From Anaerocaecibacter muris (lineage in GTDB: Bacteria; Bacillota; Clostridia; Christensenellales; Pumilibacteraceae), in assembly GCF_943192945.1 (NCBI RefSeq), contig NZ_CALPCE010000010.1, positions 1 through 45,038 on the forward strand: a stretch of 45,038 nucleotides of DNA, written 5' to 3'. The position numbers and the translations under genes were made by a program. Below the pieces are notes generated by a model. It was given only the letters and a program-made list of their open reading frames with translations, was not told where the DNA came from and searched no databases. Below, piece after piece: positions 1-44,978 of the stretch. How positions within the stretch are numbered: the stretch's first letter is position 1; every line of letters starts with the position of its first letter.

Positions 1-19
1 TAACCTCATAAATATTATT

Positions 20-1570
20 TTAATTGCACGATATGCAAAAAGAGCGCAAGACGCGCCCTTTCAAGCAGATGGTGGAGTTGTCGGGGTGAAATACGCACTT
101 CGATTTTGAAAGGTCTTTCACCGTAATTGTCTTTGTTTTCTTCGGCGTGAGATTATAGGTAATAGTAAATTTGAACGTGCCGGGATCGTCCGTGTCATCC
201 CATACTACAACGGAATTAACAAGCAGGTCTATAATGCGCCGTTGGAATTCGGGATCGTCCACGTTCCCTTTTGTAAACTCGGTAAGGAAAAAAATCACCT
301 GCGGCTTGTCTAACTTTATGACAGCCGCTTTTTCCTTTGCAAGCCGCCGTTCTGCGTTTCTGCGGTCTTTCTCTAACTCATTAAGGCGGTTGGCTAATGT
401 GAGCGATTCTGCGCCGTTCTCGACTAATTTAAGAAGCCTTGCAATGGTTTTTTCTATGTCGGCAATTTCGTTCTCTATGGTGGGAATGGCAGTCTTTTCC
501 GCCTTTTCTTTCTCCGCCGCCTGAATTGCTATATCGGCAATGTGTTCTATCATATCGGGTGTGAGCAACTCTAATGTATCTTGCACTATGGTTTTTTCTA
601 ACCACTCTTTCCGCATAGGTGATTTGGTACATCCGTTGTTACGCTCTCCGCGCCGCCCTGCGCAAGTGTAATAGAAGTATTTACGCCCGGTGTGGCTTGT
701 GCTTGCCGTACCCGTCATAACTTCGTTACAATGACCGCAAATGAGCTTTCCCGACAACATATAATCAACAAGAGCTTTCCCCCGTGCAGGTGCATCTGCG
801 TGGCTATTTAGCCGTTCCTGTACCTTGTTAAAAGTGTCTTCGTCAATGATTGCAGGAACGCCGCCCTCAACCGTTATATCCATAAATTTGTACTGTCCGA
901 TATACTTCTTATTGCGGAACATCGAGGTAAAACTGTTCTTGTTGAATTCTGCGCCTGTTTTCGTCCGATAACCTGCGCCGTTAAGCACTCGGCAAATATC
1001 AGCAACGCTTTGTCCTGCTGCGTACATTGCAAACGCTTTTCGGACGATAGGCGCGGTGCGCTCGTCAATGACTAACTTCTTATTCTCGATTTTATAACCT
1101 AATGAAATGTGTCCGCCGCAGGAATTACATTTCAGAGCCGATTCGTGCATACCTCTTGTAATCTTCTGCGCAAGCTCCCGTGAATAGAATTCAGCCATAC
1201 CCTCTAACACGGATTCAAGAATAATTCCCTCCGGGTTATCGGTGATATTTTCAGTGGCGGAAATCAAGCGCACACCGTTCTTTTTAAGCCTTGCTTTGTA
1301 TGTTGCGCTGTCGAACCTGTTCCGGGCGAAGCGGTCTAACTTATAGACGATAACGGCTTGCCATAGTTTCTTGTCGCTGTCCTTTATCATTCGTTGGAAC
1401 TCAACACGCTTTTCGACATCCTTTGTCGCAGTCAGGGCGCGATCTACATATTCTCCGACAATGGTATATCCGTTGGCTTCACAGAACTTTTCACATTCGC
1501 GCCGTTGCCCCTCAATAGACTGTTCGTTTTGCCTATCGGAACTGTATCTCATATATAATACAACATCCAT
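20..1570 (-). CDS. int: Large serine recombinase (phage integrase)
   Basis: 516 aa, the usual size of a large serine integrase. It would catalyse site-specific attP x attB recombination through a 5' phosphoserine intermediate. The N-terminal resolvase domain has the YxRxS motif with the likely nucleophile Ser10 and the DRFARN segment near residue 80. A recombinase domain follows (about 150-260), then a zinc ribbon (CGHC near 277 and two later Cys), then a long charged coiled coil (about 350-410) as in other members. The start is supported by GGAG about 7 bases upstream. It is the first gene at the left prophage end and is transcribed outward. The last residues may be encoded across the attachment core (see the candidate att site at 69-85). 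Confidence 0.95.
   Translation of the reverse strand: MDVVLYMRYSSDRQNEQSIEGQRRECEKFCEANGYTIVGEYVDRALTATKDVEKRVEFQRMIKDSDKKLWQAVIVYKLDRFARNRFDSATYKARLKKNGVRLISATENITDNPEGIILESVLEGMAEFYSRELAQKITRGMHESALKCNSCGGHISLGYKIENKKLVIDERTAPIVRKAFAMYAAGQSVADICRVLNGAGYRTKTGAEFNKNSFTSMFRNKKYIGQYKFMDITVEGGVPAIIDEDTFNKVQERLNSHADAPARGKALVDYMLSGKLICGHCNEVMTGTASTSHTGRKYFYYTCAGRRGERNNGCTKSPMRKEWLEKTIVQDTLELLTPDMIEHIADIAIQAAEKEKAEKTAIPTIENEIADIEKTIARLLKLVENGAESLTLANRLNELEKDRRNAERRLAKEKAAVIKLDKPQVIFFLTEFTKGNVDDPEFQRRIIDLLVNSVVVWDDTDDPGTFKFTITYNLTPKKTKTITVKDLSKSKCVFHPDNSTICLKGRVLRSFCISCN
69..85 (-). other. Candidate attL core inside the 3' end of the integrase gene
   Basis: Plus-strand bases 69-77 read ATGGTGGAG, identical to 44962-44970 at the 3' end of the tmRNA. 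Over 17 bases the two sites match at 14, in the same orientation, as expected for att direct repeats flanking a prophage. If correct, bases to the left of about 69 are host DNA and the integrase C-terminus and stop codon change on integration. This is inference from one short match; serine-integrase cores are often only a few bases, and an att site inside int is unusual. Confidence 0.35.
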
Positions 1571-3981: not shown

Positions 3982-5360
3982 AAATCGGCAGCAAAATCAG
4001 AATAACCGATCCGACAGACGAAGTTATGAGCTGGTGTCGTGATAACTTAATTCTTCCTAACCCCGACTACTCGAAGAAGCTACGAATGCACTTGTGGATA
4101 GGTAACACCCCCTCGCATTTATTCCTGTTCGAGATTGACGGAAACGACCTGCTTATCCCTTTTGGGTGTTTGCGCGATATTCTGCCGCTTATTGAGGGCA
4201 GTCCGATAAGAACGGTGTTCGGAAATACGGCGCGTGTTGATTATCGAGCGAATGTTCCTCTTTACGACTATCAGGAAACAGCGGTTGATGCGCTTGTCGG
4301 AGAATATTACGGCATACTTCAAAGCCCTGCCGGGAGCGGTAAAACGCAAATGGGAATTGCGGTGATTGCAAGAATGGGTGTTAAGACCTTATGGCTCACA
4401 CACACCAAAGACCTGCTCGACCAAAGTAAGGAACGCGCCGAACTGTACATAGATAAATCGCTGTTAGGCACTATCACAGAGGGCAGAGTGAATATCGGCG
4501 CAGGAATAACCTTTGCGACTATTCAAACAATGTGTAATTTAGATTTGGCACAGTACAAATACACTTGGGATTTGATTATCGTTGACGAATGTCATAGGTG
4601 TACGGGAACGCCGACCGCCGTAACGCAGTTCTACAAGGTTTTGAATTCCTTGTCGGCGCGTAACAAATACGGATTGTCTGCGACCGTGCATAGAAGCGAT
4701 GGGCTAATCAAAGCGACCTATGCTTTACTCGGAAATATCGTTTACAGCGTTCCGAGAGAAGCTGTGGAAGACAAGATTATGCAGGTAGGAATAAAGCCCG
4801 TTGGCACTCCCGTTAAGCTCACACACGAATGCTTGAATACGGACGGAACGCTATGCTATACGAAGCTCATCACTCACCTATGCACAAGCCCTGAACGAAA
4901 TCAGCTTATCACCGATTGTATTATCGAAAATGCAGAACACCCTGCGCTTATACTCTCGGATCGCCTTAACCATCTCGAAGCCTTGATGAACTCGCTCCCT
5001 TTAACTTTACGAATTAAGGCTGTAATGGTTGACGGAAAAATGACTACGAAAAAAGGCAAGGAAGAACGGAAACGGGCTATCGAAGATATGCGCACGGGCA
5101 GAAAGAAATACCTATTCGCAACATACTCACTCGCAAAAGAGGGCTTGGATATTCCCTGCTTGGAACGGTTATTTATGGCAACGCCGCAAAAGGATTATGC
5201 TGTAATAACGCAAAGCATCGGGCGTATAGCCCGAATAAGTAACAACAAACAACCGCCTATCTGTTACGACTTCGTGGACGATATTCGCTATCTGTTCAAG
5301 GCGTACAAAAAGCGGTGTACCACCTACAAAAAGAACGGCTGTTATTTTGTAGAGGATTAA
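3972..5360 (+). CDS. SF2 DEAD/DEAH-type helicase
   Basis: 462 aa from the ATG at 3972 (a GTG at 3960 is the alternative). Ordered motifs are visible: a Q-like YDYQETAVDAL, Walker A GSGKT near residue 119, DECH near 204, SAT near 235, and motif VI QSIGRIAR near 413. It is an ATP-dependent helicase or translocase of the phage replication and recombination module, similar in plan to UvsW/XPB-like enzymes. It slightly overlaps the resolvase gene, suggesting coupled synthesis. Confidence 0.9.
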   Translation: MQVKIGSKIRITDPTDEVMSWCRDNLILPNPDYSKKLRMHLWIGNTPSHLFLFEIDGNDLLIPFGCLRDILPLIEGSPIRTVFGNTARVDYRANVPLYDYQETAVDALVGEYYGILQSPAGSGKTQMGIAVIARMGVKTLWLTHTKDLLDQSKERAELYIDKSLLGTITEGRVNIGAGITFATIQTMCNLDLAQYKYTWDLIIVDECHRCTGTPTAVTQFYKVLNSLSARNKYGLSATVHRSDGLIKATYALLGNIVYSVPREAVEDKIMQVGIKPVGTPVKLTHECLNTDGTLCYTKLITHLCTSPERNQLITDCIIENAEHPALILSDRLNHLEALMNSLPLTLRIKAVMVDGKMTTKKGKEERKRAIEDMRTGRKKYLFATYSLAKEGLDIPCLERLFMATPQKDYAVITQSIGRIARISNNKQPPICYDFVDDIRYLFKAYKKRCTTYKKNGCYFVED

Positions 5361-5372
5361 AGGAGTATCGCT

Positions 5373-5483
5373 ATGACAGCATTAGAAGAAATCTTGAAAA
5401 AGATAGAAGCAAAAATCAATCTCGGAATACCGCTCACCGAGAGAGAGGCTGCTATGTGGACTTTATACGAGGATCGGAAATGA
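5373..5483 (+). CDS. 36-aa coupled small protein
   Basis: Short frame starting at ATG 5373 with AAAGGAG upstream and ending at TGA 5481-5483, which overlaps the ATG of the cytosine methyltransferase. It begins MTALEEILKKIEAK and ends TLYEDRK, probably an amphipathic helix. Similar small proteins often precede phage cytosine methyltransferases, but I cannot assign a function. The ribosome site and ATGA coupling are the evidence for it being real. Confidence 0.6.
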   Translation: MTALEEILKKIEAKINLGIPLTEREAAMWTLYEDRK

Positions 5484-7097
5484 CATTAGGCAGCTTATTT
5501 GACGGAGCAGGAACATTCCCCTTTGCAGGTTCGGTATTCGGCATAGTGCCTGTTTGGGCAAGCGAAATCGAAGCGTTCCCGATAAAAGTAACACAAAAGC
5601 GTTTCCCGAAAATGGAACACTTGGGCGATGTTACGAAAATCAAAGGAAACGAAATAACGCCCGTTGACATTATCACATTCGGTTCGCCCTGTCAGGACTT
5701 ATCCGTTGCAGGAAGACGAGCAGGGTTGGACGGAGAGCGGTCAGGCTTGTTTTTGGAAGCCGTGAGAATCATAAAGGAGATGCGTGAAAAGACCGATGGA
5801 AAATATCCAAAATACGCAATATGGGAAAATGTTCCCGGAGCATTCAGCTCCAACAAATGCGAAGACTTCCGAATCGTCCTCGAAGAATTCTGCAAAATCA
5901 AAGACAGTTCAACCGCTATTCCTCGACCTACGGGCGGAAAGTGGCGCACAGCAGGATTTATCTTGGCAGACGGATATTCAATCGCTTGGAGAACACTCGA
6001 TGCACAATTTTGGGGAGTACCCCAACGCCGTAGAAGAATCTTCCTTGTGGCAGATTTTACAGGCGGAAGTGCCGGAGAAATACTATTTGAGCAAAAAGGC
6101 TTGCAAAGGCGTTTTGCGGAGAGCCGTGAAGCGTGGAACGGAATTGCCCCTGCTTCTACTTATCGCCCTTATCCAACAGGGGGAATTGACGGAAGCGGAA
6201 CTGCAAGAGCTACGACTAATCCCCCCCCCTGTAATCTCACTTGACAATCATCCTGCCGACAGCAGAGTAACCGTCAATGCAGATAACATAATTCAAACAT
6301 TAACTTCCCGTATGGGAACGGGCGGCGGAAATACACCGCTCTTGCTTGTCGCAGAGGGTGTTGACACGTTCAATCAGACCTTGACGGGCGATAAAGCTAA
6401 AACCCTGCTTGCAGGACACATCGACAAAGACGGTGTACCCTGCGTGGCGTTAAACATTTTGCAAGATGCCATATCAAGCGAAAATGTCGCGCCGTGCTTA
6501 TCAACCGGCAACCCGAAAACAGGACAGGCGGCATTGGCAGTATGCCTACCGTACATATTGCTTGACGATCAAGGCGGCGGAGTAATCCGCACTAAACTAA
6601 ACGCCGAGAAAAGCCCGACATTACGGGCGCAGGACAAAGGACATCCGCCTTGCTTATGTTATTCGATTGACAGAGCGGCGTTCAATCAGGGCGAAAACGC
6701 ACAATTCAATATCGGCATAGACGATAAAGGAATTGCTCACACGCTTGTTGCGAAAGGTCCGGGCGCAGTTTGTTATCCTGTCGGACTTCACGGCGATAAG
6801 GCAGGAACGCTTGATGCAAGTTATTATAAAGGTTGCGGAGAGCGCAACGGCACGGAAAGAGAAGTTATAGCCTATCTGCTCAACACAAAATGGATTGTCC
6901 GCCGTGTAACGCCTACTGAATGCGCAAGGCTACAAGGAATGCCCGATTGGTGGTGTAAAGGCGTTGTTCATAAGGATGCGCCCGAATACAAAATGTGGGG
7001 CAACGGAATGGCTCTCCCTTGTGTGCTGTTCGTTATGCAGGGTATAGCTCAACAACTGCGAAAGCAGCTACTACGAAAAATCGGAGGTAAAGGCTAA
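5480..7097 (+). CDS. DNA (cytosine-5) methyltransferase, out of frame at a C9 tract (phase-variable candidate)
   Basis: C5-cytosine methyltransferase split over two frames. Frame one (5480-6244, 254 aa) has motif I LFDGAGTFP, motif IV GSPCQ with catalytic Cys71, motif VI WENVPG and motif VIII QRRRRIFL. The second frame continues from the C9 run (6221-6229) to 7097 and holds motif IX RRVTPTECARLQG and motif X YKMWGNGMALP. Eight Cs would give one 538-aa enzyme. As sequenced, the product stops soon after the tract and lacks the target-recognition part, so the gene reads OFF. A sequencing error in the homopolymer is the alternative. The start overlaps the 36-aa gene. Confidence 0.9.
6221..6229 (+). 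repeat. Poly-C (C9) tract in the cytosine methyltransferase gene
   Basis: Nine consecutive Cs in the context AAT-C9-TGTA, encoding a proline run (codons 248-250). The reading frame of the methyltransferase is lost at this point and would be restored by 8 Cs. The same context AAT-C9-TGTA occurs at 16067-16082 in another methyltransferase gene. Confidence 0.85.
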
Positions 7098-9325
7098 TGC
7101 ACATATTCGACTGCGAAGTTTTTAAGTACGATTGGCTATTCGTGTTCAAAGACCTTGAAACGGGCGAATACACCGTTATTCACAATGATAACGATGCCGT
7201 GAAAGGGTTTATGACAGAAGACAAGGTGATTGCCGGATTCAATAACAAATGGTACGACAATCACATTCTGAAAGCTGTCCTGTGCGATGCCGACAACGAA
7301 ACGATAAAGGGTATCAATGACTTTATTATCGGCGGCAGGAATGGTTGGGAACACCCTTTCATTCAAGCGCATAAGTGCTATTTCGACAGCTTCGACCTTA
7401 TGGACGATATGCAACAGGGATTATCTCTGAAAGCCATAGAAGCCCATTTAGGTATCAATATCAAAGAATCCGAAGTGGACTTCAATATTGACAGACCGCT
7501 TACTACGGAAGAACTTGACGAAACAATTCTTTACTGCAAATACGATGTCGATTCTACCGAAAGGCTGTTCAGACTGCGTGAAAACTATCTGCAAAATAAA
7601 CTCACGCTTGGCAGGGCAAAAGGTATTCCCGACACCAAAGCGTTGTATATGACAAACGCAAAATTAACCGCAAGCTATCTTGATGCTCAAAAACCTGTGG
7701 CGGAATACACGGACGAGCGCGATTATGTATATCCCGAAAATTTACTCCGTGAATACATTCCGCAGGAAGTGTTCGACTTCTTCGATAAGTTGCACGACAG
7801 GACTATCCCGGACGATGTGATATTCGCAAGCAAGTATGAATTCAAAATCGGTGAATGCGAATGCACGGTTGCTTACGGCGGAATACACGGAGCTATCCCC
7901 TCCTATCGGGAAAAGGCTACGGAAAGCCGCTCAATCCGCAATCAAGATGTTGCAAGTTACTACCCCCATTTAATGACTTTGGACGGGTATTGTAGCCGAA
8001 ACATCCCCGATCCGAGCATTTATGCGGCAATGCTTGAAAAGCGTATGTTGGCTAAAAAGACGGGTGATAAGGCTACGGCAAATGCCTTGAAGCTCGTTGC
8101 AAATACGACCTACGGCGCAATGCTCAATCAGTACAACGACCTTTACGATCCGCTTATGGGTAGAAGCGTGTGTATTACGGGGCAGCTCCGTTTGCTTGAA
8201 CTCACTTTCAACCTCGTTGCACATTGCCCTACATTAAAGGTTATTCAGCTCAATACGGACGGTATTATGGTTAGCCTTGACAATTCCGACCTCGTTTCAT
8301 TCTCGCAAATCTGCAAGGAATGGCAGGAACGCACGGGATTTGAACTTGAAGAAGACTGTATCAAAGAAATCGTTCAAAAGGATGTAAATAACTATATCGA
8401 AATCGCTATGGACGGTGGAACAAAAATCAAAGGCGGTCAGTTGGTACGGGGAATTGCTCCGGCAGGAGCGTTCAATATCAACAATAACGCTACTATCGTT
8501 GCAAAGGCTATCTTGGAATATTTCGTCCACGATACGCCCGTTGAAAAGACGATAAACGAATGTCAGGACATACTCGCTTTTCAGCTTGTCGCAAAGGTAT
8601 CAAGCAAGTACACCGAAGCGTTTCATATCGTAAACGGCGTGAAAGTGCCTATACAGCGTTGTAACCGTGTGTACGCTTCTCCCGACGTTCTAAATGGAAC
8701 GCTGTACAAAGTACACGCTACGAAAAGCAACGACAACAAAATTGCAGGGCTTCCCGACCATTGCGTGATAGACAACGAAAATCAGCTCTCCGTAAAGGAC
8801 ATCGACAAAGTGTGGTATATCCGCTTGGCGAAGAAGTATATCAAAGACTTTCTCGGCATTGTGGTTAAGAAGCCTAACGGTAACAAAATAAGGGCTATCA
8901 GGCGGAGAATTCTGCAAGCTCTGAATTGCGAAGAACCGCCGCAGAAGCCCGAAAAACCGAAGCCGAAAGAAACCGAACCTGCGGCAGCAATCGACATAAC
9001 GGATTATCGCCCGTACACCTACGAGGAAGAACCTATGCCGAGCTACAAGATTGACGGATTGTTTTTACAACAAACGAGCTATGCTTGCCCTGAACAATAC
9101 GAAGTGTTTGATTGGGAGAGCAAGCAGGTTGGCTATCTTCGTTTGAGGTGGGGAACATTTAGGGTTGACTTCATTCATTCGGACGGTGAAAGAGAAACGA
9201 TCTACCAAACAAGCGATTGCGAGGGCGATGGTGAATTCAGCGATTCCGAAAGAATGCGGTACTTAAATTTAGCTGCTAAAAAAATAAATAATAAAATTTT
9301 GGAGGTTAAAAATGGCAGTAACTAA
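7097..9325 (+). CDS. Family B DNA polymerase with 3'-5' exonuclease domain
   Basis: 742 aa. The N-terminal exonuclease has the DxE of motif ExoI (FDCEVF, residues 4-9) and an ExoIII-like YCKYDVDST. Polymerase motif A is QDVASYYPHLM near residue 283, motif B KLVANTTYGAM near 331, and motif C NTDGIMV near 385, where NTDG replaces the usual DTD. It replicates phage DNA together with the primase and helicases of this operon. About 140 residues after position 600, including a Pro/Lys-rich linker and an aromatic domain, are not part of the polymerase core that I recognise. The start overlaps the previous stop (TAATG). Confidence 0.9.
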   Translation: MHIFDCEVFKYDWLFVFKDLETGEYTVIHNDNDAVKGFMTEDKVIAGFNNKWYDNHILKAVLCDADNETIKGINDFIIGGRNGWEHPFIQAHKCYFDSFDLMDDMQQGLSLKAIEAHLGINIKESEVDFNIDRPLTTEELDETILYCKYDVDSTERLFRLRENYLQNKLTLGRAKGIPDTKALYMTNAKLTASYLDAQKPVAEYTDERDYVYPENLLREYIPQEVFDFFDKLHDRTIPDDVIFASKYEFKIGECECTVAYGGIHGAIPSYREKATESRSIRNQDVASYYPHLMTLDGYCSRNIPDPSIYAAMLEKRMLAKKTGDKATANALKLVANTTYGAMLNQYNDLYDPLMGRSVCITGQLRLLELTFNLVAHCPTLKVIQLNTDGIMVSLDNSDLVSFSQICKEWQERTGFELEEDCIKEIVQKDVNNYIEIAMDGGTKIKGGQLVRGIAPAGAFNINNNATIVAKAILEYFVHDTPVEKTINECQDILAFQLVAKVSSKYTEAFHIVNGVKVPIQRCNRVYASPDVLNGTLYKVHATKSNDNKIAGLPDHCVIDNENQLSVKDIDKVWYIRLAKKYIKDFLGIVVKKPNGNKIRAIRRRILQALNCEEPPQKPEKPKPKETEPAAAIDITDYRPYTYEEEPMPSYKIDGLFLQQTSYACPEQYEVFDWESKQVGYLRLRWGTFRVDFIHSDGERETIYQTSDCEGDGEFSDSERMRYLNLAAKKINNKILEVKNGSN

Positions 9326-10067
9326 CAACAACAGCAAAGGCACATACACGGATTTGAACGTGTACGCAAAACTCCTACTCGCAAGGAAAATGTTCCTTAC
9401 GGCAGGTGTGAAGAAAACGGGCGTAAATAGACACCTTGAATTCAAGTATTTTGAGCTTGAAGACATCGTGCCGGTTGCTACCGAAATCGGAAACGAAATC
9501 GGGCTTCTGTTCTTGACTACTTTCGAGAACGAATACGCGCTTATGACGGTAGTCAATACCGATAATCCTACCGAAACGATTGAATTCAAATCCCCTATGA
9601 AAGAGATTGATTCTATCGAATCGAGCAGGACGGGCGGCAAGCTCACTAACGCCGTTCAGAACTTGGGTTCGGTTGAAACCTACCAACGCCGCTATCTCTA
9701 TATCACCGCGCTCGATATTGTCGAAGCGGACGGATTTGACGGAGATGTTGGCGCACCCGAAGCAAAGGCTACTACGAAGAAACCTGCGCCCAAAAAGGCA
9801 GCTCCCGTTACGCCCGAAAAGCGCAAAGAAATCAAAAACGAAGTGGTTGACAGCGCAGGACAGGCAGACGAACTTCAAATCGAAGCTCTGAAAAATGTTA
9901 TGGAACAGCTTCTCGAACTCGATCCCGAACAGGAATCGCTCGTTCAGCAAATCGTTGTCGAAACGGACAAGCTCACGAATATCAGCAAGGAAGCGTGTGA
10001 AACGCTTATCACCGAACTCGGTCAGCTTGTCGAATCGTACACCGTTGTCAATGGCTCGGAGGAATAA
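9312..10067 (+). CDS. ERF-family single-strand annealing protein
   Basis: 251 aa, ATG preceded by GGAGG. The first 150 residues match the ERF pattern, including NLGSVETYQRRYLY and the alternating beta/helix core. An Ala/Pro/Lys-rich linker and an acidic C-terminal domain follow. ERF proteins anneal complementary single strands in phage recombination, working with an exonuclease; the YqaJ-type nuclease is the next gene, making a Red-like pair. Confidence 0.85.
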   Translation: MAVTNNNSKGTYTDLNVYAKLLLARKMFLTAGVKKTGVNRHLEFKYFELEDIVPVATEIGNEIGLLFLTTFENEYALMTVVNTDNPTETIEFKSPMKEIDSIESSRTGGKLTNAVQNLGSVETYQRRYLYITALDIVEADGFDGDVGAPEAKATTKKPAPKKAAPVTPEKRKEIKNEVVDSAGQADELQIEALKNVMEQLLELDPEQESLVQQIVVETDKLTNISKEACETLITELGQLVESYTVVNGSEE

Positions 10068-10070
10068 GGT

Positions 10071-11120
10071 ATGGAATGGCTTAACTCAAAGCAAATCAAA
10101 GTACAGCCGCCTAAACGCCCGAAGAAGCTCACGGGTACAAGGTTGGCGGCAATCTTCGGGCTTAACAAGTGGACTACCCCTTTCGCCGTTTGGTGTGAAA
10201 TCACGAAGACTTATCAAGAGCCTTTTGAAGATACAATTTACACCAAAGCAGGTAAAGCAATCGAACCGAAGCAGATTGCCTTTATGAAGAAATCCTACTA
10301 TATGACGGACACAAAAACGCCGACAGATATATACGGCGCGGACTACTTCAACAAAACCTACGGCGATTTTTTCAAGAGCGATCCGATATTCGGCGGAATG
10401 TGGGATGCAATCAGGGTGAACAAAAACGGCGATGTGTATTCCGTTCTCGAATTCAAGACTACGAAACGCGCCGAAGATTGGCAGGGTGAAATTCCCGAAT
10501 ATTACGCCCTGCAAGCGGCTCTGTACGCTTATCTGCTCGGCGTTGACAGCGTGGTAATGATTTGTTCGTTCCTCGAAGAATCGGACTACGCCGCACCCGA
10601 AAAATTCGTTCCGAGCGCAAAGAATACGATAACCGTTCCTTTCAAATTGAGTGAACGCTATCCGAACTTTGAAAAAGACTACATACTTCCTGCGCGGCAA
10701 TGGTGGGCGGACTTCGTGGAAACGGGTATATCCCCCTGCTATGACGAAAAGGCGGATGCGGAAATTCTTAAAGTTTTACGCACGAACAATCTCAATCCTG
10801 ACACCGACATAAACGGCATTATTGCGGAAGCGGAAGCCCTGCAAGCGAAGATTGATGCGGCAGAAGCGGAAATGAAAGCCGACACCGACCGTCTGAAAAT
10901 TCTCACCGAACAAATCAAAGAACACGCTATGTCGCAATTCCGTGATGGCGATACGAAAGTAACTATCAGCGGCAGCACCTATGTTTGGCAGTTGGCGAAA
11001 ACGGAATCCACCGAAATCGACAAAACCGCACTCAAAGCGGACGGACTGCTTGACAAGTACAGCAAGCCGAAAATCGGCTATCGTTTAACAAAAAATTCTA
11101 TTAAAAAGGAGAACAAATAA
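10071..11120 (+). CDS. YqaJ-type (lambda-exonuclease-like) recombination nuclease
   Basis: 349 aa. The N-terminal part has the TRLAAIFGLNKW signature, GGMWDAI near residue 108 and EFKTTK near 126, which give the D...ExK catalytic core of the YqaJ/lambda exonuclease fold. The C-terminal third is a long charged helix followed by a conserved-looking TYVWQLAKTESTEID segment. It resects double-stranded ends to make substrate for the ERF protein upstream. Confidence 0.88.
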   Translation: MEWLNSKQIKVQPPKRPKKLTGTRLAAIFGLNKWTTPFAVWCEITKTYQEPFEDTIYTKAGKAIEPKQIAFMKKSYYMTDTKTPTDIYGADYFNKTYGDFFKSDPIFGGMWDAIRVNKNGDVYSVLEFKTTKRAEDWQGEIPEYYALQAALYAYLLGVDSVVMICSFLEESDYAAPEKFVPSAKNTITVPFKLSERYPNFEKDYILPARQWWADFVETGISPCYDEKADAEILKVLRTNNLNPDTDINGIIAEAEALQAKIDAAEAEMKADTDRLKILTEQIKEHAMSQFRDGDTKVTISGSTYVWQLAKTESTEIDKTALKADGLLDKYSKPKIGYRLTKNSIKKENK

Positions 11121-11122
11121 TT

Positions 11123-11656
11123 ATGGCAAAAATCGCACTTTCCGACAGCACTTTCGCTGTCTGCCCGGAGGGAACTCACATTTTCCGTATTGAAGCGGTA
11201 AGCTACAAAGAAGACTTCGGCAAACTCGAAATCACGATGAAGACGAAAGAGGGTTATACGCATATCGAGCGTTTCAATTTCGTCAAATCTAACGGAGAAC
11301 CCAACGAAATTGCAATCGGCATCTTCTCCCTGTTTGCAAAAATCTGTTTGCAGAACTTCGACCTCGAAGAAATCGACCACGAAGATTTGGTTGGTTGCTT
11401 TATCAAATGCGAAGTAACGCACGATGTTCAGCCGAACAAGAACGATCCTAACAAGAATATTACATTCTCTCGCTTGGGAAGTAAGGCGCAGGCGGACGAG
11501 TACGAAGACGGAGAAACCGCCACCGCTCCTGCACCTGCCACACCGAAGAAAGCAGCCCCCGTTACTCCTGCAAAGGCTACCCCTGCCACTACGCCGAAAA
11601 CCGCCGCCGCTCCCGGCAAAAAGGTGGATTTGGCTTCCATTTTAGGTAGGAAATGA
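11123..11656 (+). CDS. DUF669-like ssDNA-binding-type phage protein
   Basis: 177 aa. A compact beta-rich N-terminal domain of about 115 residues is followed by a low-complexity Ala/Pro/Thr/Lys tail ending KKVDLASILGRK. This layout and the position right after ERF and YqaJ fit the DUF669/SSB-like proteins of phage recombination modules. The tail may bind partner proteins, as SSB tails do. The family call rests on context more than on a motif. Confidence 0.6.
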   Translation: MAKIALSDSTFAVCPEGTHIFRIEAVSYKEDFGKLEITMKTKEGYTHIERFNFVKSNGEPNEIAIGIFSLFAKICLQNFDLEEIDHEDLVGCFIKCEVTHDVQPNKNDPNKNITFSRLGSKAQADEYEDGETATAPAPATPKKAAPVTPAKATPATTPKTAAAPGKKVDLASILGRK

Positions 11657-11892
11657 GAGAGAACAGACTACTGCTAAACTGCGTTAAATACTGCAAATCG
11701 GAGGGTATTTTTCATACCGTTGTTAAGGATAGCTTGTTCGTCTGCATAAACGAAAAGTTCATTGCTTTTCGCTTCGGCGCGGCAAGCGTGAAAGACGATA
11801 AACGGCTTGTGAAAAACGGAGGGCGTGTATATCGTCCTCCTACCCTCGAAGATTTTGTGGGAACTATCAGAAAGATACAAGGCGGTGATTGA
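11653..11892 (+). CDS. Small early protein, unknown function
   Basis: 79 aa, coupled to the previous gene by an ATGA overlap. It contains two Cys in CVKYCK, a beta-like FVCINEKFIAFRFG and a C-terminal RPPTLEDFVGTIRK. Family not recognised. It lies between the ssDNA-binding-like gene and the primase. Confidence 0.6.
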   Translation: MRENRLLLNCVKYCKSEGIFHTVVKDSLFVCINEKFIAFRFGAASVKDDKRLVKNGGRVYRPPTLEDFVGTIRKIQGGD

Positions 11893-11893
11893 T

Positions 11894-12691
11894 ATGAGTA
11901 ATCCTTTCGAGAATATCCCAAAAGAATTAACAGACTTGAAACAATGGGTATGTGCTTGGAACAATTCAAAACTTCCGATGAAAGCATACGAAAAAAAAGC
12001 GGCATCATCCATCGATTCGACTACTTGGAGCGACTTTGAAATTGCGAAAGCCGCCGTTGAAAACGGAACTTACGACTATGTGGGATTCGTGTTTAACGAT
12101 AACGGCATTGTCGGAATTGATGTAGATGACGGGTTTGATTCGACAGGTTTTCTTTCGGATTTGAGCATAGACCTTATGAAAGCGTGTAAATCGTTCACGG
12201 AGAAATCTCGGAGCGGACGAGGAATTCATATCTATGTCAAAGGTAAATTGCCGTTTAACGGAAAGAACAATCGGCAGGGCGTTGAAATTTATCAGCAAGG
12301 CAGGTTTTTTATCACAACGGGCAGAATGCTTGTGTATAAAGACCTTATTGAAAATCAGGCGGCTATTGATTATATCGTTGAGAAGTATTTCCCCGAAATC
12401 GACAGAGTGCGTGAAGACGGTACGGTTGAAAAAGCACCTGCATTCTATACCCCCGTTTTTGAGAAACCTGCAAACGGCAAAATTTCCTTAAAACCGACCT
12501 ATCCCAAAATAGCGCAGGGCTTACGAAATCAATCCCTTACTTCCCTTGCAGGGCAACTGCACAGCAGGGGCTACACGAAACAACAAATCTACTACGAACT
12601 GCTCCGTTGCAATCAAGAAGCGTGTACACCGCCACTCCCGGCGCGTGAAATACAGACCATTGTAAACAGCGTAACGAAGTATCAAAGGTGA
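11894..12691 (+). CDS. Prim-Pol type phage primase
   Basis: 265 aa from the ATG at 11894, with AAGGCGGTG upstream. The N-terminal domain begins NIPKELTDLKQWVCAW and has GIDVDDGF near residue 74 and SGRGIHIYVKG near 115, which are the acidic and Arg/His motifs of bifunctional primase-polymerase domains. Residues about 200-262 look like a primase C-terminal helical domain (SLAGQLHSRGYTKQQIYYEL). It would prime replication for the family B polymerase. It is short enough that it probably needs the separate SF3 helicase at 14296. Confidence 0.8.
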   Translation: MSNPFENIPKELTDLKQWVCAWNNSKLPMKAYEKKAASSIDSTTWSDFEIAKAAVENGTYDYVGFVFNDNGIVGIDVDDGFDSTGFLSDLSIDLMKACKSFTEKSRSGRGIHIYVKGKLPFNGKNNRQGVEIYQQGRFFITTGRMLVYKDLIENQAAIDYIVEKYFPEIDRVREDGTVEKAPAFYTPVFEKPANGKISLKPTYPKIAQGLRNQSLTSLAGQLHSRGYTKQQIYYELLRCNQEACTPPLPAREIQTIVNSVTKYQR

Positions 12692-12695
12692 AAAT

Positions 12696-13428
12696 ATGTC
12701 AGTTCAGATCACTCACGGCGATTGCCTGAAAATAATGCCTACGATGGCGGATAACAGCGTTGATTTTACGCTAACCGATATTCCATACGGGGAAGTAAAT
12801 CGGAGCGACAACGGCTTACGGAAGCTCACAAAAGAGCAAGCCGACATATTGACTTTTGGGCTAACGGACTTCCTCTCGGAAGTGTACAGAATAACGAAAA
12901 ACAATATCTGTATATTCTGCGGACGGGAACAATTTAGCGAAATACATAAATTCTTTACCTCGATTGGGGGGGGGGAGTTGCCGACCTATCGTTTGGGAGA
13001 AATCAAATCCCTCCCCTATGAACGGGCAGTACGTTTATTTAAGCGGCGTGGAATTCGCCGTATGGTTCAAAAAGCAAGGCTCGAAAGTGTTTAATGCGCG
13101 GTGCAAAAATGTGGTTTTCAAGTACCCTAATGGCACAAGCAAACTGCATCCGACCGAAAAGAACCACAAATTATTGAGAGAGTTGATTTTGGATAATACC
13201 AACGAGGGAGATATGGTTTTCGATCCTTGTATGGGAAGCGGCAGTCATCTTCTCGTTGCCGCCGAAAACGGCAGAAACGGGAAAGGCGTTGAACTCAACG
13301 AACATTACTTCGGTATTGCAAAGGAACGCCTATCCCCTTATACCTGCTCAAACATTGGCTCAATCATAGACAGAATTAGGAGAATTAAAGATGAACAGCA
13401 AAGTACAGGAAATGCTCAAACTTGTTGA
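12696..13428 (+). CDS. N4/N6 (beta-class) DNA methyltransferase, out of frame at a G10 tract (phase-variable candidate)
   Basis: Two overlapping frames encode one amino-methyltransferase. Frame one (12696-13094) has the start ITHGDCLKIMPTM and motif IV DIPYG. Frame two (from the tract to 13428) has WEKSNP, HPTEKN and motif I FDPCMGSGS. The order IV then I is the beta class. The frames meet at G10 (12966-12975); nine Gs would give one protein of about 243 aa. As sequenced the product ends after 132 aa without motif I, so the gene reads OFF. Its 3' end overlaps the next methyltransferase start. Confidence 0.88.
12966..12975 (+). repeat. Poly-G (G10) tract in the beta-class methyltransferase gene
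   Basis: Ten Gs after ATT encode a glycine run (codons 91-93). The open frame changes exactly here, and nine Gs would restore it. This is the longest homopolymer I saw in the window. Confidence 0.85.
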
Positions 13429-14092
13429 TAAATTCAGCAATCGGCATCATAAACACGAAGTTCTTTCGGATTGCTTTGAGTGTTGGGCTATCTGCCTTTC
13501 AAATATGGTAGATACGCCGCAACGTGATGAGCGTGAAAAGCGATACCTTGAAATCGTCAAAAAGTACGATAAGTGCGACCTTGACATTATGGCGGAGCTG
13601 TTTGCGTTGGTATGGATAACGCTTACGCAAATGCCCGAAAACGGGTTTGCGGATTACTTGGGCGAACTCTATATGGCAAGCGATACAAGCAACAAAAAGG
13701 CAGGACAATTCTTCACGCCGTACAGCGTATCAAAGCTCTCCGCCGAACTCACCTTAAAAGGCAGCGATAGTTTGAAAGAGGATATTATCACTCTCTACGA
13801 ACCTACCTGCGGAAGCGGCGGAATGATACTTGCGGCGATGGATACGCTCCAAAACGACTGCGGTATCAATTACACGGCGCACAGCTTCACCGTTGCAGGT
13901 GATGTTGACAGCAGGTGTGTTCACGCTTGCTACATACAATTATCGCTTGCAGGTGTACCTGCTATCGTTGAACAGCGCGATGCTCTCACGATGGAGCTTA
14001 TCGGCGGTCAATGGAAAACTCCTGCCTATATTTTTCAATATATGCGTTTTAGGCACTTACTCAAAGGCACGGTACACGGAGGCAACAAATGA
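13391..14092 (+). CDS. N6-adenine methyltransferase, HsdM-like phage type
   Basis: 233 aa with AGGAG upstream of the ATG. It contains GQFFTPYSV followed by motif I EPTCGSGGMIL near residue 140, the SAM-binding signature of N6_Mtase/HsdM proteins. A clear NPPF/NPPY motif IV is not visible; the region where it should be reads GDVDSRCVHAC and then WKTPAYIF, as in a phage subfamily I have seen described only as a putative methylase. There is no homopolymer tract, unlike the other three methyltransferase genes. No restriction subunit is adjacent. Confidence 0.8.
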   Translation: MNSKVQEMLKLVDKFSNRHHKHEVLSDCFECWAICLSNMVDTPQRDEREKRYLEIVKKYDKCDLDIMAELFALVWITLTQMPENGFADYLGELYMASDTSNKKAGQFFTPYSVSKLSAELTLKGSDSLKEDIITLYEPTCGSGGMILAAMDTLQNDCGINYTAHSFTVAGDVDSRCVHACYIQLSLAGVPAIVEQRDALTMELIGGQWKTPAYIFQYMRFRHLLKGTVHGGNK

Positions 14093-14292
14093 CAAGAAAG
14101 CAATTTTTCAAAGCGATAGGGTTAGATCAGCGTAGAGATAAACTACCTTTTCTCAACCTAATAAAGCGATATAGCGGCAGACTTTCCTACACTCGGATGT
14201 ATCTACTGGTTTATACTGCGGTAATGTTCGGTAAATCCGGGAGCGAAATCATTTCCTATATCGAAGTGATAATGGATAACGAACGGAGGTAA
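14089..14292 (+). CDS. Small basic early protein, unknown function
   Basis: 67 aa, coupled by ATGA to the methyltransferase before it. It starts MTRKQFFKAIGL and is basic with a hydrophobic centre (MYLLVYTAVMFG). No family recognised. It lies directly before the SF3 helicase gene. Confidence 0.55.
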   Translation: MTRKQFFKAIGLDQRRDKLPFLNLIKRYSGRLSYTRMYLLVYTAVMFGKSGSEIISYIEVIMDNERR

Positions 14293-14295
14293 TCA

Positions 14296-15783
14296 ATGAG
14301 CAACGAAGCTATAACACCCGAACTGTTCCAACTTAAAAACGGACAATACATTATGTCGGAAGACCTTTCGGCAAAAATGTTTTACATAAAGAGCGTTCAG
14401 CCCGAAGCATATCAGGCGAACAACAGCGGCTATTCTTGGGATGAAAGCGGTATGGCGGAACTGTTTTCGGAATGTTACGAAAATGATACGCGCTTCTGCC
14501 CCGAAAACAAATCGTGGTACACCTATGACAACGGGTATTGGAAAAAAGATGTCGGCTCTCTGCTTGTTGCAGAAAAGATAAAGGAATTTACGCGCCTTAT
14601 GGCTCTCTACTGCGGCGAAATCGCAGACGAAAGCAAACGCAAAGACTATTTCAAATTCGTTTCCAAAATGGGTGATAGACGGTTTAGGGATAGGCTTATG
14701 AAAGATGCAACAGGGGTAAAGCCTATTCCTGTTGCTATGTTCGACAGCAATCCGAATCTTATCAACTGCATCAACGGAACTTACGACCTTGAAACAATGA
14801 CTTTCCGTGAACATAATTGGCGCGACTTCTTGACGATGCGTTCCAACATTGAGTACACGGCTACCGAAGATGTCCGTTGCGACCGTTGGGAAAAGTTTAT
14901 AGACGAAGTAACCTGCGGCGATAACGGGAAAGCGGACTACCTACAACGGGCGTTAGGATATTCAATGCTCGGCGTTTGCAAGGAAGAATGTATGTTCATC
15001 CTGCACGGGAAAACTACCCGTAACGGCAAAAGTACGCTTCTCGGAACTATCCACCACCTGTTAGGCGATTATGCGACCGTATCTCCCGTTTCGATTATCT
15101 GCAAATCGGATAGGTCAAAGAACGCAGAAGCAGCAAGCCCGACAATCGCCGCTCTTAAAGGTAAGCGTTTCGTGTCGATGTCGGAAAGCGATCAGTACGG
15201 AAAGTTGGACGAAGAAGTAATCAAGCAGCTTACGGGCGGCGAAGAAATAACCGCCCGGAACCTGTACGAATCGATGATGACATATCTTCCGCAGTTCACA
15301 ATGTGGCTGTCCTGTAATGATTTACCTGCCGTTCAGGACAAATCCTTATTTGCTTCGGATCGTGTGCGTGTGATTGAATTCAATCGGCACTTCTCCGAAA
15401 AAGAACGTGATATCAACCTCAAGGAAGTATTTAGGACGAAAGAAGCCGTTATGGGTATCTTCACTTGGCTTCTTGCAGGATATTTCAAATACAAGCGTTT
15501 CGGACTTGCTATGAATGACGAAATGAAAGCCGTTATTAAGCAGTACGAAAAAGATAACGACCTTGTGTTGCAATTTTTGGAAGAACGCTGTATCAGCTCC
15601 GAAACGGGCAGCAGGGCGAAAACGCTTTACGATGCCTACAAGATATGGTGTAAAAGCAACGGCTATTTCGTTTGCAGCGCAAAGAAGTTTAATGCAGGGA
15701 TGGAACAGCATCCCGAACTGCATAAGGGAAAAGTTATGCGTGATGGCTACCCGTTTTATAAGGGTATTGAGTTGAGAGGTTGA
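14296..15783 (+). CDS. D5/P4-type SF3 helicase (phage replicative helicase)
   Basis: 495 aa with CGGAGG upstream. The N-terminal D5-N-like domain (about 60-200) is followed by the superfamily 3 ATPase with Walker A GKTTRNGKST near residue 237, a Walker B region near MSESDQ and motif C WLSCNDLP. The C-terminal domain resembles the winged-helix region of P4-like primases. It would unwind the origin and replication fork. The priming function seems to be supplied by the separate gene at 11894. Confidence 0.9.
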   Translation: MSNEAITPELFQLKNGQYIMSEDLSAKMFYIKSVQPEAYQANNSGYSWDESGMAELFSECYENDTRFCPENKSWYTYDNGYWKKDVGSLLVAEKIKEFTRLMALYCGEIADESKRKDYFKFVSKMGDRRFRDRLMKDATGVKPIPVAMFDSNPNLINCINGTYDLETMTFREHNWRDFLTMRSNIEYTATEDVRCDRWEKFIDEVTCGDNGKADYLQRALGYSMLGVCKEECMFILHGKTTRNGKSTLLGTIHHLLGDYATVSPVSIICKSDRSKNAEAASPTIAALKGKRFVSMSESDQYGKLDEEVIKQLTGGEEITARNLYESMMTYLPQFTMWLSCNDLPAVQDKSLFASDRVRVIEFNRHFSEKERDINLKEVFRTKEAVMGIFTWLLAGYFKYKRFGLAMNDEMKAVIKQYEKDNDLVLQFLEERCISSETGSRAKTLYDAYKIWCKSNGYFVCSAKKFNAGMEQHPELHKGKVMRDGYPFYKGIELRG

Positions 15784-15784
15784 T

Positions 15785-16393
15785 ATGGCAAAAGATTGGA
15801 AAGGAAACGGCAATTCGATATATAAAGCTCTCGGCGCATCCAACCATACCGAAGCGGAGCGTGAAGACAACGATTATTACGCTACCGATCCGATAGCGAT
15901 TGATAAGCTATTGGCGGCGGAAAAGCCGTACAGGATTATTTGGGAGTGCGCTTGCGGACAAGGACACCTGTCGGACAGGTTGAAGAAAAACGGATTTATG
16001 GTTTTTTCTTCCGACCTTATTGACAGGGGTTATCCGGGAACGCAGGTCAAAGATTTTCTAACGGCGAATCCCCCCCCCTGTACCTGCGACATTCTCACAA
16101 ATCCCCCGTACAAATACGCAAAGGAATTTGTGTTACGGGCGTTAGAGTTGATAAAGCCGGGAAGAAAGGTCTATATGTTTTTGAAGCTCACCTTTTTAGA
16201 GGGCAAAGCTCGATACATAGAACTTTTCAGCAAATATCCCCCGAAAACCGTATATGTTTTCAGCGAACGGGTTTTATGCGCAAAGAACGGCGATTTTCAA
16301 CGGATGAAAGATACGGGCGGCTCTGCCGTTGCCTACGCTTGGTTCGTTTGGGAAAAAGGCAATTACGGCGGTACGGAGATTAAGTGGATATGA
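15785..16393 (+). CDS. N6-adenine methyltransferase with an in-frame C9 tract
   Basis: 202 aa. Start DYYATDP, motif I WECACGQGHLS (about residues 49-59) and motif IV NPPY at residues 106-109 identify a phage-type adenine methyltransferase. A C9 run (16070-16078) encodes three prolines at 96-98, ten residues before NPPY, and here the frame is kept, so the gene reads ON. Loss or gain of one C would truncate the protein before motif IV. The flanking bases are the same as at the cytosine methyltransferase tract. Confidence 0.88.
   Translation: MAKDWKGNGNSIYKALGASNHTEAEREDNDYYATDPIAIDKLLAAEKPYRIIWECACGQGHLSDRLKKNGFMVFSSDLIDRGYPGTQVKDFLTANPPPCTCDILTNPPYKYAKEFVLRALELIKPGRKVYMFLKLTFLEGKARYIELFSKYPPKTVYVFSERVLCAKNGDFQRMKDTGGSAVAYAWFVWEKGNYGGTEIKWI
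16070..16078 (+). repeat. Poly-C (C9) tract in the adenine methyltransferase gene
   Basis: Nine Cs in the context AAT-C9-TGTA, identical to the context at 6218-6233. It is in frame in this sequence. Confidence 0.85.
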
Positions 16394-41074: not shown

Positions 41075-42286
41075 ATGTCAACATCAACCGAAAAACATAG
41101 AATTATGACGGACGAAACGGGGCAAGACATTGTAGCTGCACTTCAAGGATTAGGTGCGGCGATCCGTAACGATTCAATCGAATACGGAGTGCGTTTTACT
41201 ATCGGTGCAAGCAATTCCGCAGGTGAGCGTGTTATTAGGCAAAATGGGGTTATTTCCGCTTGGAATATCACCTTTACAAGAAACATTAACAACGGAAATG
41301 CAAACTGTCCGTTTGCGGCTTATGACCTGTTTAATCCTGCACTTTGGACGGATGCCGCAGGAAATGTTTTCAGGCGTTTCAGTAGGTTCTACTATCTCAA
41401 AGAAACCATAGGAAACTATGAGTATATTTGGGTATGCAGAAAACAGGTTCAACCGGGTTACAGACTTCCGAAAGCGTTCCTACCTAATTGGAAATATGTC
41501 GATATTGCCGTTTACGAGGGCGGTACGGAAACGATTGACGGCGTAACCTATCTTAACTCGAAAAGCGGCTCTACGCTTGCAAGAAGCCTTACAAGGACGG
41601 CGGCGTTTGACAGGGCAAAGGCGTGGCACTCCAAACTCGGTATAACCGATTTAACCCGTGAATTCTATTGCATTACCACCGCAAGCGAAATTACGGAAAT
41701 TTGGCAACCGTTAATTTACATACAGCTTGCATCCAAAAACAGCGATGCAGGATATTACGGACATACGGACAATTCGTGGGATGAATCCAACCTTATTATG
41801 CCCGGACAAACGGATGTGATCAATGGTTTACACGGCACGGTAGCGAACGATAAACTTCATTCGTTCAAAATGCTCGGAATCGAAAATTTATGGGGAAATC
41901 AATGGAAGCACGTTCTTGATATTACTATTCTTGATTATGTTCCCTATGTATGTGATGACCTGCAAAAATGGACGGAAACAAGCACTCCGAACACAAACGA
42001 AGCGTTCAGTGCGGTAAATTATTCTGTAACTACGGAAAACGGATATGTCAAGACTATGGGATATGATGCACAACATCCCGAAGTTATTCTCCCGACCGCT
42101 GTCGGCGGTTCTGATGCTACCTATTATGCAGATTATGTATGGGTAGCAAGTGGGGCAAGAACCGTTTTCTTTGGCGGTTATCTGTATAACGGTCGTGACT
42201 GCGGTCTGTCGTTTTGGTATCTGTATAGTACGGTCGGCTACTCGTATTGGTTTATCGGTGCGCGCCTTTCTCATAGGTCTTTGTAG
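41075..42286 (+). CDS. Variable receptor-binding protein, DGR target (C-type-lectin-like)
   Basis: 403 aa with AAGGAG upstream. The last third has the layout of DGR target proteins of the C-type-lectin/FGE-like fold, ending in GGYLYNGRDCGLSFW and IGARL. Residues about 366-399 are the variable region, whose codons differ from the template at 42361-42461 only at template adenines. Eight of nine template Asn codons are changed (six to Tyr, one Ser, one Phe). It most likely makes the tail fibre tip that binds the host surface, so its diversification changes host range. Confidence 0.9.
   Translation: MSTSTEKHRIMTDETGQDIVAALQGLGAAIRNDSIEYGVRFTIGASNSAGERVIRQNGVISAWNITFTRNINNGNANCPFAAYDLFNPALWTDAAGNVFRRFSRFYYLKETIGNYEYIWVCRKQVQPGYRLPKAFLPNWKYVDIAVYEGGTETIDGVTYLNSKSGSTLARSLTRTAAFDRAKAWHSKLGITDLTREFYCITTASEITEIWQPLIYIQLASKNSDAGYYGHTDNSWDESNLIMPGQTDVINGLHGTVANDKLHSFKMLGIENLWGNQWKHVLDITILDYVPYVCDDLQKWTETSTPNTNEAFSAVNYSVTTENGYVKTMGYDAQHPEVILPTAVGGSDATYYADYVWVASGARTVFFGGYLYNGRDCGLSFWYLYSTVGYSYWFIGARLSHRSL
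42172..42272 (+). repeat. DGR variable region (VR)
   Basis: 101 bp at the 3' end of the target gene, aligned without gaps to the template repeat 189 bp downstream. Eleven positions differ and all eleven are adenine in the template (ten A-to-T, one A-to-G). The invariant tail ATCGGTGCGCGCC is the likely initiation-of-mutagenic-homing end. Confidence 0.95.
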
Positions 42287-42296
42287 GGGGGATTTT

Positions 42297-42314
42297 AAGG
42301 GGGTTCTCCCCCTT
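42297..42314. promoter_or_regulatory. Hairpin downstream of VR (homing signal)
   Basis: AAGGGGG (42297-42303), loop TTCT, CCCCCTT (42308-42314). A GC-rich hairpin or cruciform with a 4-base loop just behind VR is required for efficient target recognition in the Bordetella phage system (known). The target stop codon is at 42284-42286. It may also act as a terminator. Confidence 0.75.
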
Positions 42315-42360
42315 TGTGCTGCGTAAATAACATATTTAATATACACGGGGTTTGTGAGTG

Positions 42361-42461
42361 TGGCGGTAATCTGAATAACGGTCGTGACTGCGGTCTGTCG
42401 TATTGGAATCTGAATAATACGGTCGGCAACTCGAATTGGAATATCGGTGCGCGCCTATCTC
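42361..42461 (+). repeat. DGR template region (TR)
   Basis: 101-bp template with 23 adenines, most in nine AAY codons, in the same orientation as VR and between VR and the reverse transcriptase gene. It is transcribed and copied by the error-prone reverse transcriptase, with mutation at adenines. The open frame across it is not a gene. Confidence 0.95.
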
Positions 42462-42596: not shown

Positions 42597-42611
42597 GTGA
42601 ACAACGGTTAT

Positions 42612-44961: not shown

Positions 44962-44978
44962 ATGGTGGAGATGACCGG
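44962..44978 (-). other. Candidate attR core at the tmRNA 3' end
   Basis: ATGGTGGAG plus eight further bases, matching 69-85 at 14 of 17 positions. Placing the core at the tmRNA CCA end would regenerate a complete tmRNA after integration. See the left site for caveats. Confidence 0.4.

What the first reader, a model, noticed from the sequence alone, without database searches (positions are those of the whole stretch)
6221..16078. Three DNA methyltransferase genes each carry a 9-10 base poly-C/G tract
The window has four methyltransferase genes. Three contain the only very long homopolymers I saw: C9 at 6221-6229, G10 at 12966-12975 and C9 at 16070-16078. Two genes lose their frame exactly at the tract (8 C or 9 G would restore it) and one is in frame. 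The two C9 tracts share the context AAT-C9-TGTA. This is the pattern of contingency loci that switch by slipped-strand mispairing. A prophage switching several methylation specificities could vary its anti-restriction state or reprogramme host gene expression (phasevarion). Homopolymer sequencing error is the main alternative, but it does not explain why long tracts occur only in methyltransferase genes.
Basis: partly seen in the sequence, partly recalled or inferred. Interest (0 to 1): 0.92.

Follow-up and report, generated by a model that had tools for sequence, protein, structure and literature searches.

The report
Phage methylation genes with slippery switches
A virus integrated in a bacterial genome carries three DNA-methylating enzyme genes with runs of 9-10 identical bases, and in related viruses such runs differ in length and thereby open or break the gene, which suggests that phages randomly switch their chemical DNA marks on and off.

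Summary
C9 (6221-6229), G10 (12966-12975) and C9 (16070-16078) are the only C/G runs of 7 or more in 45,038 bp; all lie in methyltransferase (MTase) genes; two change frame at the tract, one is open. The nearest relatives (71-78% protein identity) carry tracts at these sites, with differing lengths or frame states for M1 and M2. There, phages 90-99% alike differ in tract length and frame; one 99% pair has the tract as its only gap in 10,036 bp. Slipped-strand phase variation is best supported; its use (restriction bet-hedging or phasevarion) is inferred. A repeat-bearing prophage MTase was already known, so this is a new variant of a known kind.

The parts
5480..6244 (+). M1, 5' part: C5-cytosine DNA methylase, upstream frame, ends at a stop just after the tract
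   Evidence: PF00145 E 6e-35 for the ORF 5315-6244; PHROG_116 DNA methyltransferase E 1e-60
6221..6229 (+). C9 tract in M1, in the variable region between the catalytic part and the C-terminal conserved block; frame changes here
   Evidence: alignment A2 of open relatives; low-confidence region 206-422 in the model of the open homologue L279
6230..7097 (+). M1, 3' part in another frame, with the C-terminal C5-MTase block
   Evidence: PF00145 C-terminal match E 5e-6
12696..13094 (+). M2, 5' part with the DIPY motif
   Evidence: PHROG_67 DNA methyltransferase E 3e-16 for 12696-12965
12966..12975 (+). G10 tract in M2, between the DIPY block and the rest; frame changes here
12964..13428 (+). M2, 3' part in another frame: N6_N4_Mtase domain with DPCMGSGSH
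   Evidence: PF01555 E 2e-18; PHROG_67 E 1.5e-31
15785..16393 (+). M3: 202-aa N6-adenine-type MTase (NPPY), open across its tract
   Evidence: PHROG_799 DNA methyltransferase E 2e-64; no Pfam match; AlphaFold pLDDT 84 with M.TaqI as best PDB match, E 3.8e-8
16070..16078 (+). C9 tract in M3, coding Pro-Pro-Pro (residues 96-98) in a loop before the strand that leads to NPPY (106-109)
13391..14092 (+). Fourth MTase-like gene (N6_Mtase), no tract
   Evidence: PF02384 E 3e-9
69..80 (.). Left attachment core (12 bp, 1 mismatch to the right core); bases 1-80 match the host site on contig C6 with 1 mismatch
44962..44973 (.). Right attachment core; 44962-45038 is identical to C6 at the 3' end of the tmRNA gene

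Best explanation
The three tracts are slipped-strand contingency loci in MTase genes of a temperate phage integrated at the tmRNA gene of an unnamed host. Gain or loss of a base during replication moves the reading frame: M1 and M2 are broken in this assembly and M3 is open. Shown here: tract positions and frame states; the same M1 and M2 sites with other lengths or frame states in diverged relatives; length and frame variation between closely related phages for another MTase class, which includes a gene of the second prophage of this genome. Inferred: that the three window tracts switch reversibly at a high rate, and that the benefit is bet-hedging of the phage's own methylation. A marked genome would escape classical restriction; an unmarked one would escape enzymes that cut methylated DNA; several independent switches give many combinations. 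The MTases lie among helicase and primase genes, which fits marking of replicating phage DNA better than a purely lysogenic role.
For: Only C/G runs of 7 or more, all in MTases. M1 site: C10 with broken frame in L091/L092, C9 with open frame in L094 and L279. M2 site: G10 broken in L171, G8 open in L172, no tract and open in L173-L177. M3 site: C9 open in L179. Homology-fetched M1 loci: 10 tracts of 9 or more in 137,266 bp of gene, 0 in 331,346 bp of flank (77 loci). Second prophage on C6: C5-MTase with G10, G12 and G11; ParB_N plus N6_N4_Mtase with G15 at the domain junction. G008 (same genus) has the same junction with G10, frames also different. Related groups: L519/L580 G9 broken, L509/L549/L559 G10 open, L545 G11 broken (DNA about 90-92% alike across states); L513 G10 open, L568 G11 broken (99%); L557 G10 open (only 51 upstream codons held), L515 G11 broken, own C6 G15 broken. 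L513/L568: 10,036 bp, 96 mismatches, the tract the only gap; L515 and L557 against own C6: the tract the only gap in 4,196 and 3,341 aligned bp. Helicase and primase neighbours.
Against: No near-identical copy of the window phage was found (the tools say such records may be left out), so variation of its own tracts is seen only between relatives of 71-78% protein identity, and the M3 site shows C9 both times. No reads were available. Most relatives lack tracts: 79 of 80 M1 relatives in named genomes have no run of 8 or more in the held gene (8 loci are short); 74 of 80 C6-MTase relatives have a longest G run of only 2-4 before the motif; four stretches of three named phage records have none; of 20 loci returned for each protein in 74 family genomes only the own genome and G008 have one. 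For M3 loci the gene is hardly enriched: 1 tract in 45 kb against 4 in 402 kb of flank (one of the 4 is the M2 tract). Some frame breaks or stops lie in genes without tracts (L101, L120, L311, L348, L357, L178, L190). In the more diverged pairs other gaps exist too: 27 in L515/L557, 25 in L551/L515, 3 each in L509/L519 and L509/L545. The host genome is rich in tracts, so mutational bias contributes. A MutS gene is present.
Confidence: 0.8

Rival explanations
1. Homopolymer length errors of sequencing or assembly make intact genes look broken.
For: Two of three window genes are out of frame; long G/C runs are error-prone; 10 of 70 same-genus stretches come from contigs that end within 200 bp of the tract.
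Against: The tracts recur at the same sites in independent assemblies. In the closest pairs the tract is the only gap over 3-10 kb, and in L513/L568 the A6, G6 and T7 runs agree. Enrichment before DPPYN over the controls is not explained by error.
Confidence: 0.07
2. Mutational by-product: this host lineage expands G/C runs, and the prophage MTases are decaying or tolerant passengers, not selected switches.
For: 32 tracts of 8 or more in the genome; 58 of 74 family genomes, own included, have runs of 10 or more; no clear gene enrichment for M3; prophages decay.
Against: M1 genes carry 10 tracts and their flanks none; tracts lie at different sites of the same gene in different phages, and L097/L098 have two (GA/AG)10 arrays plus a G8; the 82 loci with a G tract before DPPYN fall into 65 groups; 71 of 80 M1 and 79 of 80 M3 relatives run from the first to the second half without frame change or stop.
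Confidence: 0.15
3. RNA-level slippage or programmed frameshifting at the tract gives both products from one DNA sequence.
For: Polymerase or ribosome slippage on long runs is known in general (recalled).
Against: DNA length varies between closely related phages and moves between frames, open ones included.
Confidence: 0.08
4. The switch serves the lysogen: random methylation changes host gene expression (prophage-borne phasevarion) rather than protecting phage DNA. This rival accepts the DNA switch and differs in function only.
For: A prophage MTase (PamA) changes host expression in S. aureus (PMC13076061 passages); the host itself has promoter-borne tracts.
Against: MTases sit in the replication module beside helicase and primase genes.
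Confidence: 0.3

Closest known systems
Phase-variable modA/modM/modS-type MTases and phasevarions (Haemophilus, Neisseria, Moraxella, Streptococcus suis)
   Same: Simple repeat in an MTase reading frame; length change switches the frame
   Different: Those are host Type III or Type I systems (search listing, and recalled); here phage MTases of several classes with poly-G/C, several per phage
M.Btr192IV / M.Btr189ORF5700P of Bibersteinia trehalosi prophages (PMC4996451)
   Same: Prophage-borne MTase with an intragenic repeat (12 copies of CAAG)
   Different: Tetranucleotide near the start in a Gram-negative host, not expressed there, significance called unclear (passages); no length variation in those passages
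Campylobacter poly-G/C contingency loci, including Cj0031
   Same: G/C runs of 8 or more in or near reading frames, including restriction-modification genes (passages of PMC4687069, PMC539331, PMC6321876)
   Different: Host genes of Campylobacter in those passages; here prophage and phage MTase genes in another lineage
Neisseria meningitidis phase-variable candidates (PMC5084427)
   Same: Repeat-borne candidates include 'prophage related functions' (one passage)
   Different: The passage names no phage MTase
Prophage MTase PamA of Staphylococcus aureus
   Same: Prophage-encoded MTase affecting the host (passages of PMC13076061)
   Different: No repeat tract mentioned in those passages

Membership tests
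Simple-repeat contingency locus (phase variation) | Unusually long simple repeat inside a coding frame or promoter | tested here: met
Simple-repeat contingency locus (phase variation) | Repeat length decides the reading frame | tested here: met
   Frame change at the tract in M1 and M2, open relatives exist
Simple-repeat contingency locus (phase variation) | Length varies among near-identical genomes | tested here: inconclusive
   For M1 and M2 only relatives of 71-78% protein identity differ, for M3 none; met for the DPPYN-type class, e.g. a 99% pair
Simple-repeat contingency locus (phase variation) | Reversible high-rate switching in a clonal population | not testable with these tools
   No reads or cultures
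C5-cytosine DNA MTase | PF00145 catalytic and C-terminal blocks | tested here: met
   Met in two pieces, in two frames
N6/N4 MTase (PF01555) | Pfam match above cut-off | tested here: met
   M2 3' part 67.9 bits against a cut-off of 26.7
N6-adenine MTase of TaqI-like fold (M3) | NPPY motif and MTase fold | tested here: met
   NPPY invariant in the 28 aligned sequences; M.TaqI top match, TM 0.56 by query; no PDB sequence match; activity and target not tested
Phasevarion | Switching MTase alters methylome and a set of genes | not testable with these tools
   Needs methylome and RNA data
Orphan anti-restriction phage MTase | No partner endonuclease, and methylation of phage DNA | not tested
   No systematic endonuclease search was run

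The most novel reading that the evidence does not exclude
Phages of many lineages keep hypermutable runs in one or several of their own MTase genes as a combinatorial, heritable bet-hedge of DNA marking: each burst holds genomes with different methylation sets, so some survive classical restriction and others survive enzymes that cut methylated DNA. In multi-tract C5-MTases (own C6, L159) slippage may also swap stretches of the variable region, changing specificity rather than only ON/OFF.
Probability: 0.35. Interest if true: 0.92.

Novelty: new variant of a known kind. Interest (0 to 1): 0.82.

Why it matters
Phase variation is described mainly for surface and restriction genes of bacteria; a 2025 review says that extending its map to phage phylogenies could inform why it evolves (PMC11868660 passage). 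Here runs of the same kind appear in phage MTases of four types; for one type, open and broken states occur in phages up to 99% alike. If so, phage DNA marking is a population trait, which gives a direct test of why some phages carry several MTases. The host lineage also appears to have many poly-G promoters.

Tried and rejected
Tried: exact AAT-C9-TGTA context in IMG/VR, 0 hits (near records may be left out). PDB sequence search for M3, no match. Terminal overlap that would make the contig circular, none; the ends instead match a host tmRNA site. Host naming: not achieved; the closest named M1 relative is an uncultured Clostridia MAG labelled Lapin (rabbit, inferred from the label). Loss of mismatch repair as the cause: MutS_III is present; MutL was not searched. 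M3 second-site C8 runs in L188, L233, L234, L237 and L246 lie at a YPP stretch common in the family, so I do not count them as switches. The L279 model is poor over 206-422 and is used only to say that the tract region is modelled without confidence.

Rejected or down-weighted: sequencing error; 'tracts only in MTases'; the shared context of the two C9 tracts as meaningful. Frame breaks without tracts are listed in the Against line.

Counting caveats: one search dropped 3 duplicates each of 80 M1 and 80 M3 loci, took the span of tblastn matches as the gene, and still counts L091 and L092, which are nearly the same phage (8 mismatches in 5,972); L159 gives 4 of the 10 tracts. In 'same frame' did not exclude stops; one search corrected this (M1 71 of 80, M3 79 of 80, M2 6 of 8 run through). 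A ParB domain was tested only in own C6 and by tblastn in G008, not in the IMG/VR stretches. My promoter rule flags 8 of 29 own tracts (L044 is weak) and 17 of 74 same-genus tracts (L380 and L415 are weak; some tracts lie by N runs or in odd contig ends). The same-genus stretches are 70 regions chosen from 82 tracts counted; I left out those near contig starts and neighbours in one region.

Full report
OBSERVATION. The window is the whole contig C10 of a 1.97 Mb, 12-contig genome, 95.7% complete. The C/G run lengths break off at 6 and resume at 9-10; Markov simulations expect about 0.05-0.1 runs of 9 or more and never gave 3 (200 per order). The genes are a C5-cytosine MTase (M1), an N6/N4 MTase (M2) and a small N6-adenine-type MTase (M3); a fourth MTase-like gene has no tract. 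M1 and M2 change frame at the tract; M3 is open.

SETTING. The contig looks like a temperate phage: terminase, helicase, primase and reverse transcriptase matches and a recombinase-like ORF at 20-1570 (by eye). Its two ends match one uninterrupted stretch of contig C6 at the 3' end of the tmRNA gene, meeting in a 12-bp core with one mismatch. C6 therefore carries the empty site and C10 the occupied form; both were probably present in the sample (inference). Helicase lies directly before M1 and primase directly before M3.

RELATIVES OF THE THREE GENES. For M1, both halves lie in one frame in 74 of 80 IMG/VR relatives, in different frames in 5, and 1 lacks the second half; 71 of the 74 have no stop in between, the others being L101, L107 and L159. 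The C tract at the window's site is C10 with a broken frame in L091/L092 and C9 with an open frame in L094; the MAG locus L279 has C9 and is open. Other tracts lie further upstream in the gene: G8-G9 near one site in L091-L093 and L096, G10 in L107. L097/L098 carry two (GA/AG)10 arrays plus a G8 and change frame; L159 carries four G tracts of 9-10 and two of 7 with many stops between the halves. M2: of 8 relatives, L171 has G10 and is broken, L172 has G8 and is open, L173-L177 have no tract and are open, L178 has no tract but 8 in-frame stops. M3: L179 has C9 at the site and is open; 79 of 80 run through, L190 has one stop. In homology-fetched loci, tracts of 9 or more are: M1, 10 in 137 kb of gene and 0 in 331 kb of flank; M2, 1 in 5 kb and 1 in 42 kb (the latter the M3 tract of the same phage); M3, 1 in 45 kb and 4 in 402 kb (one of them the M2 tract). 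In named genomes 1 of 80 M1 relatives, the nearest, has a run of 8 or more in the gene. So the tract is a local feature of a small part of the family.

THE REST OF THE GENOME. There are 32 C/G tracts of 8 or more. Three are in the window. Four lie in two MTase genes of a second prophage on C6: a C5-MTase with G10, G12 and G11, and a ParB_N plus N6_N4_Mtase gene with G15 at the domain junction. Of the other 25, seven lie convincingly between a TTGACA and a TATAAT-like hexamer; the genes behind them include an LRR_5/Listeria-repeat protein, a weaker Listeria-repeat match, a lipoprotein-like protein (by eye), an ABC transporter ATPase and three without a Pfam match. Others touch LacI, AraC and histidine kinase genes. 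In the same genus 17 of 74 tracts are flagged as promoter spacers; 58 of 74 family genomes, own included, have runs of 10 or more. MTase matches on C4:130-142 kb have no tract of 8 or more near them.

ANOTHER CLASS GIVES THE DIRECT EVIDENCE. Part of the excess comes from a Gly-Gly before the motif (by eye), but in 80 relatives fetched by homology 74 have G runs of only 2-4 there and 6 have 8 or more, three of these from the lineage of the own C6 gene. The 82 loci examined (80 listed plus L260 and L364) fall into 65 groups; counted per group, length and state, 43 are open, 24 broken and 5 undecided. Within groups length and state differ: G9 broken, G10 open, G11 broken (90-92% alike across states); G10 open, G11 broken (99%); and in the lineage of the own C6 prophage G10 open, G11 broken, G15 broken. 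L513 and L568 align over 10,036 bp with 96 mismatches and one gap, the tract. L515 and L557 against own C6 (97-98%) have the tract as the only gap in 4,196 and 3,341 aligned bp, with larger unaligned differences outside. The more diverged pairs have further gaps (27 in L515/L557). Other homopolymers of 6 or more are mostly unchanged. In the same genus, G008 has a 91% identical MTase part with G10 and the two halves in different frames.

MECHANISM. Slippage at replication changes tract length and thus frame. In M1 the break removes the C-terminal block; in M2 it removes the part with DPCMGSGSH; in M3 the tract codes Pro-Pro-Pro in a loop before the NPPY strand, so slippage would end or garble the protein before the active site. 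The biochemical result is inferred and motif roles are recalled. Function is open: bet-hedging of phage DNA marking (my preference, about 0.5) or a prophage-borne phasevarion (about 0.3).

COMPARISON. The nearest precedent found is a repeat-bearing prophage MTase in Bibersteinia (12 CAAG copies; PMC4996451 passages). Searches in the held open-access library showed, among the listed papers (several lists were cut, e.g. 20 of 122 and 15 of 166), none whose title, abstract start or passages read describe poly-G/C switching of phage MTases; preprints and most subscription papers are not held. Hence: new variant of a known kind.

Noticed in passing
Host contigs, e.g. C2:43363-43395, C2:196886-196915, C2:206805-206833; also L259, L261, L263, L266: G12-G14 tracts fill the spacer of sigma70-like promoters (TTGACA...TATAAT-like), spacers of 17-21 nt, some upstream of surface-type proteins: probable phase-variable promoters, also seen in same-genus genomes.
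   Followed up: partly
window 41075-42538 and 42597-43727: Probable diversity-generating retroelement: reverse transcriptase (PHROG_1423), a variable-region-like C-terminus and a template-like copy downstream (by eye).
   Followed up: no
L637 13716-16301 (C6 prophage): The second prophage also has a reverse-transcriptase-like gene behind a tail-type protein, possibly another diversity-generating retroelement (by eye).
   Followed up: no
window 1-80 and 44962-45038; C6:37710-37854: Prophage integrated at the tmRNA 3' end; the assembly holds both the occupied and the empty site.
   Followed up: yes
L382, L384, L393, L406, L408, L413 (same-genus genomes): G10-G11 tracts at the junction of two consecutive ORFs (the next starts 10-13 nt after the tract; the first ends just after it or, in L406, overlaps); possibly switches of read-through or coupling.
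   Followed up: no
L159 3480-4670: One C5-MTase gene with six G runs (7, 9, 7, 9, 10, 9) and several frame changes in its variable region.
   Followed up: partly
L097/L098 3713-3732 and 3983-4002: Two (GA/AG)10 arrays inside a phage C5-MTase gene, a different repeat type in the same gene family.
   Followed up: no
L361, L371, L375, L376, L401, L404, L414, L416, L417, L424: Ten of 70 same-genus stretches come from contigs that end within 200 bp of a G/C tract, as if assemblies break there.
   Followed up: no
L178: An M2 relative with 8 in-frame stops under table 11 in an otherwise conserved MTase; possibly a recoded stop.
   Followed up: no
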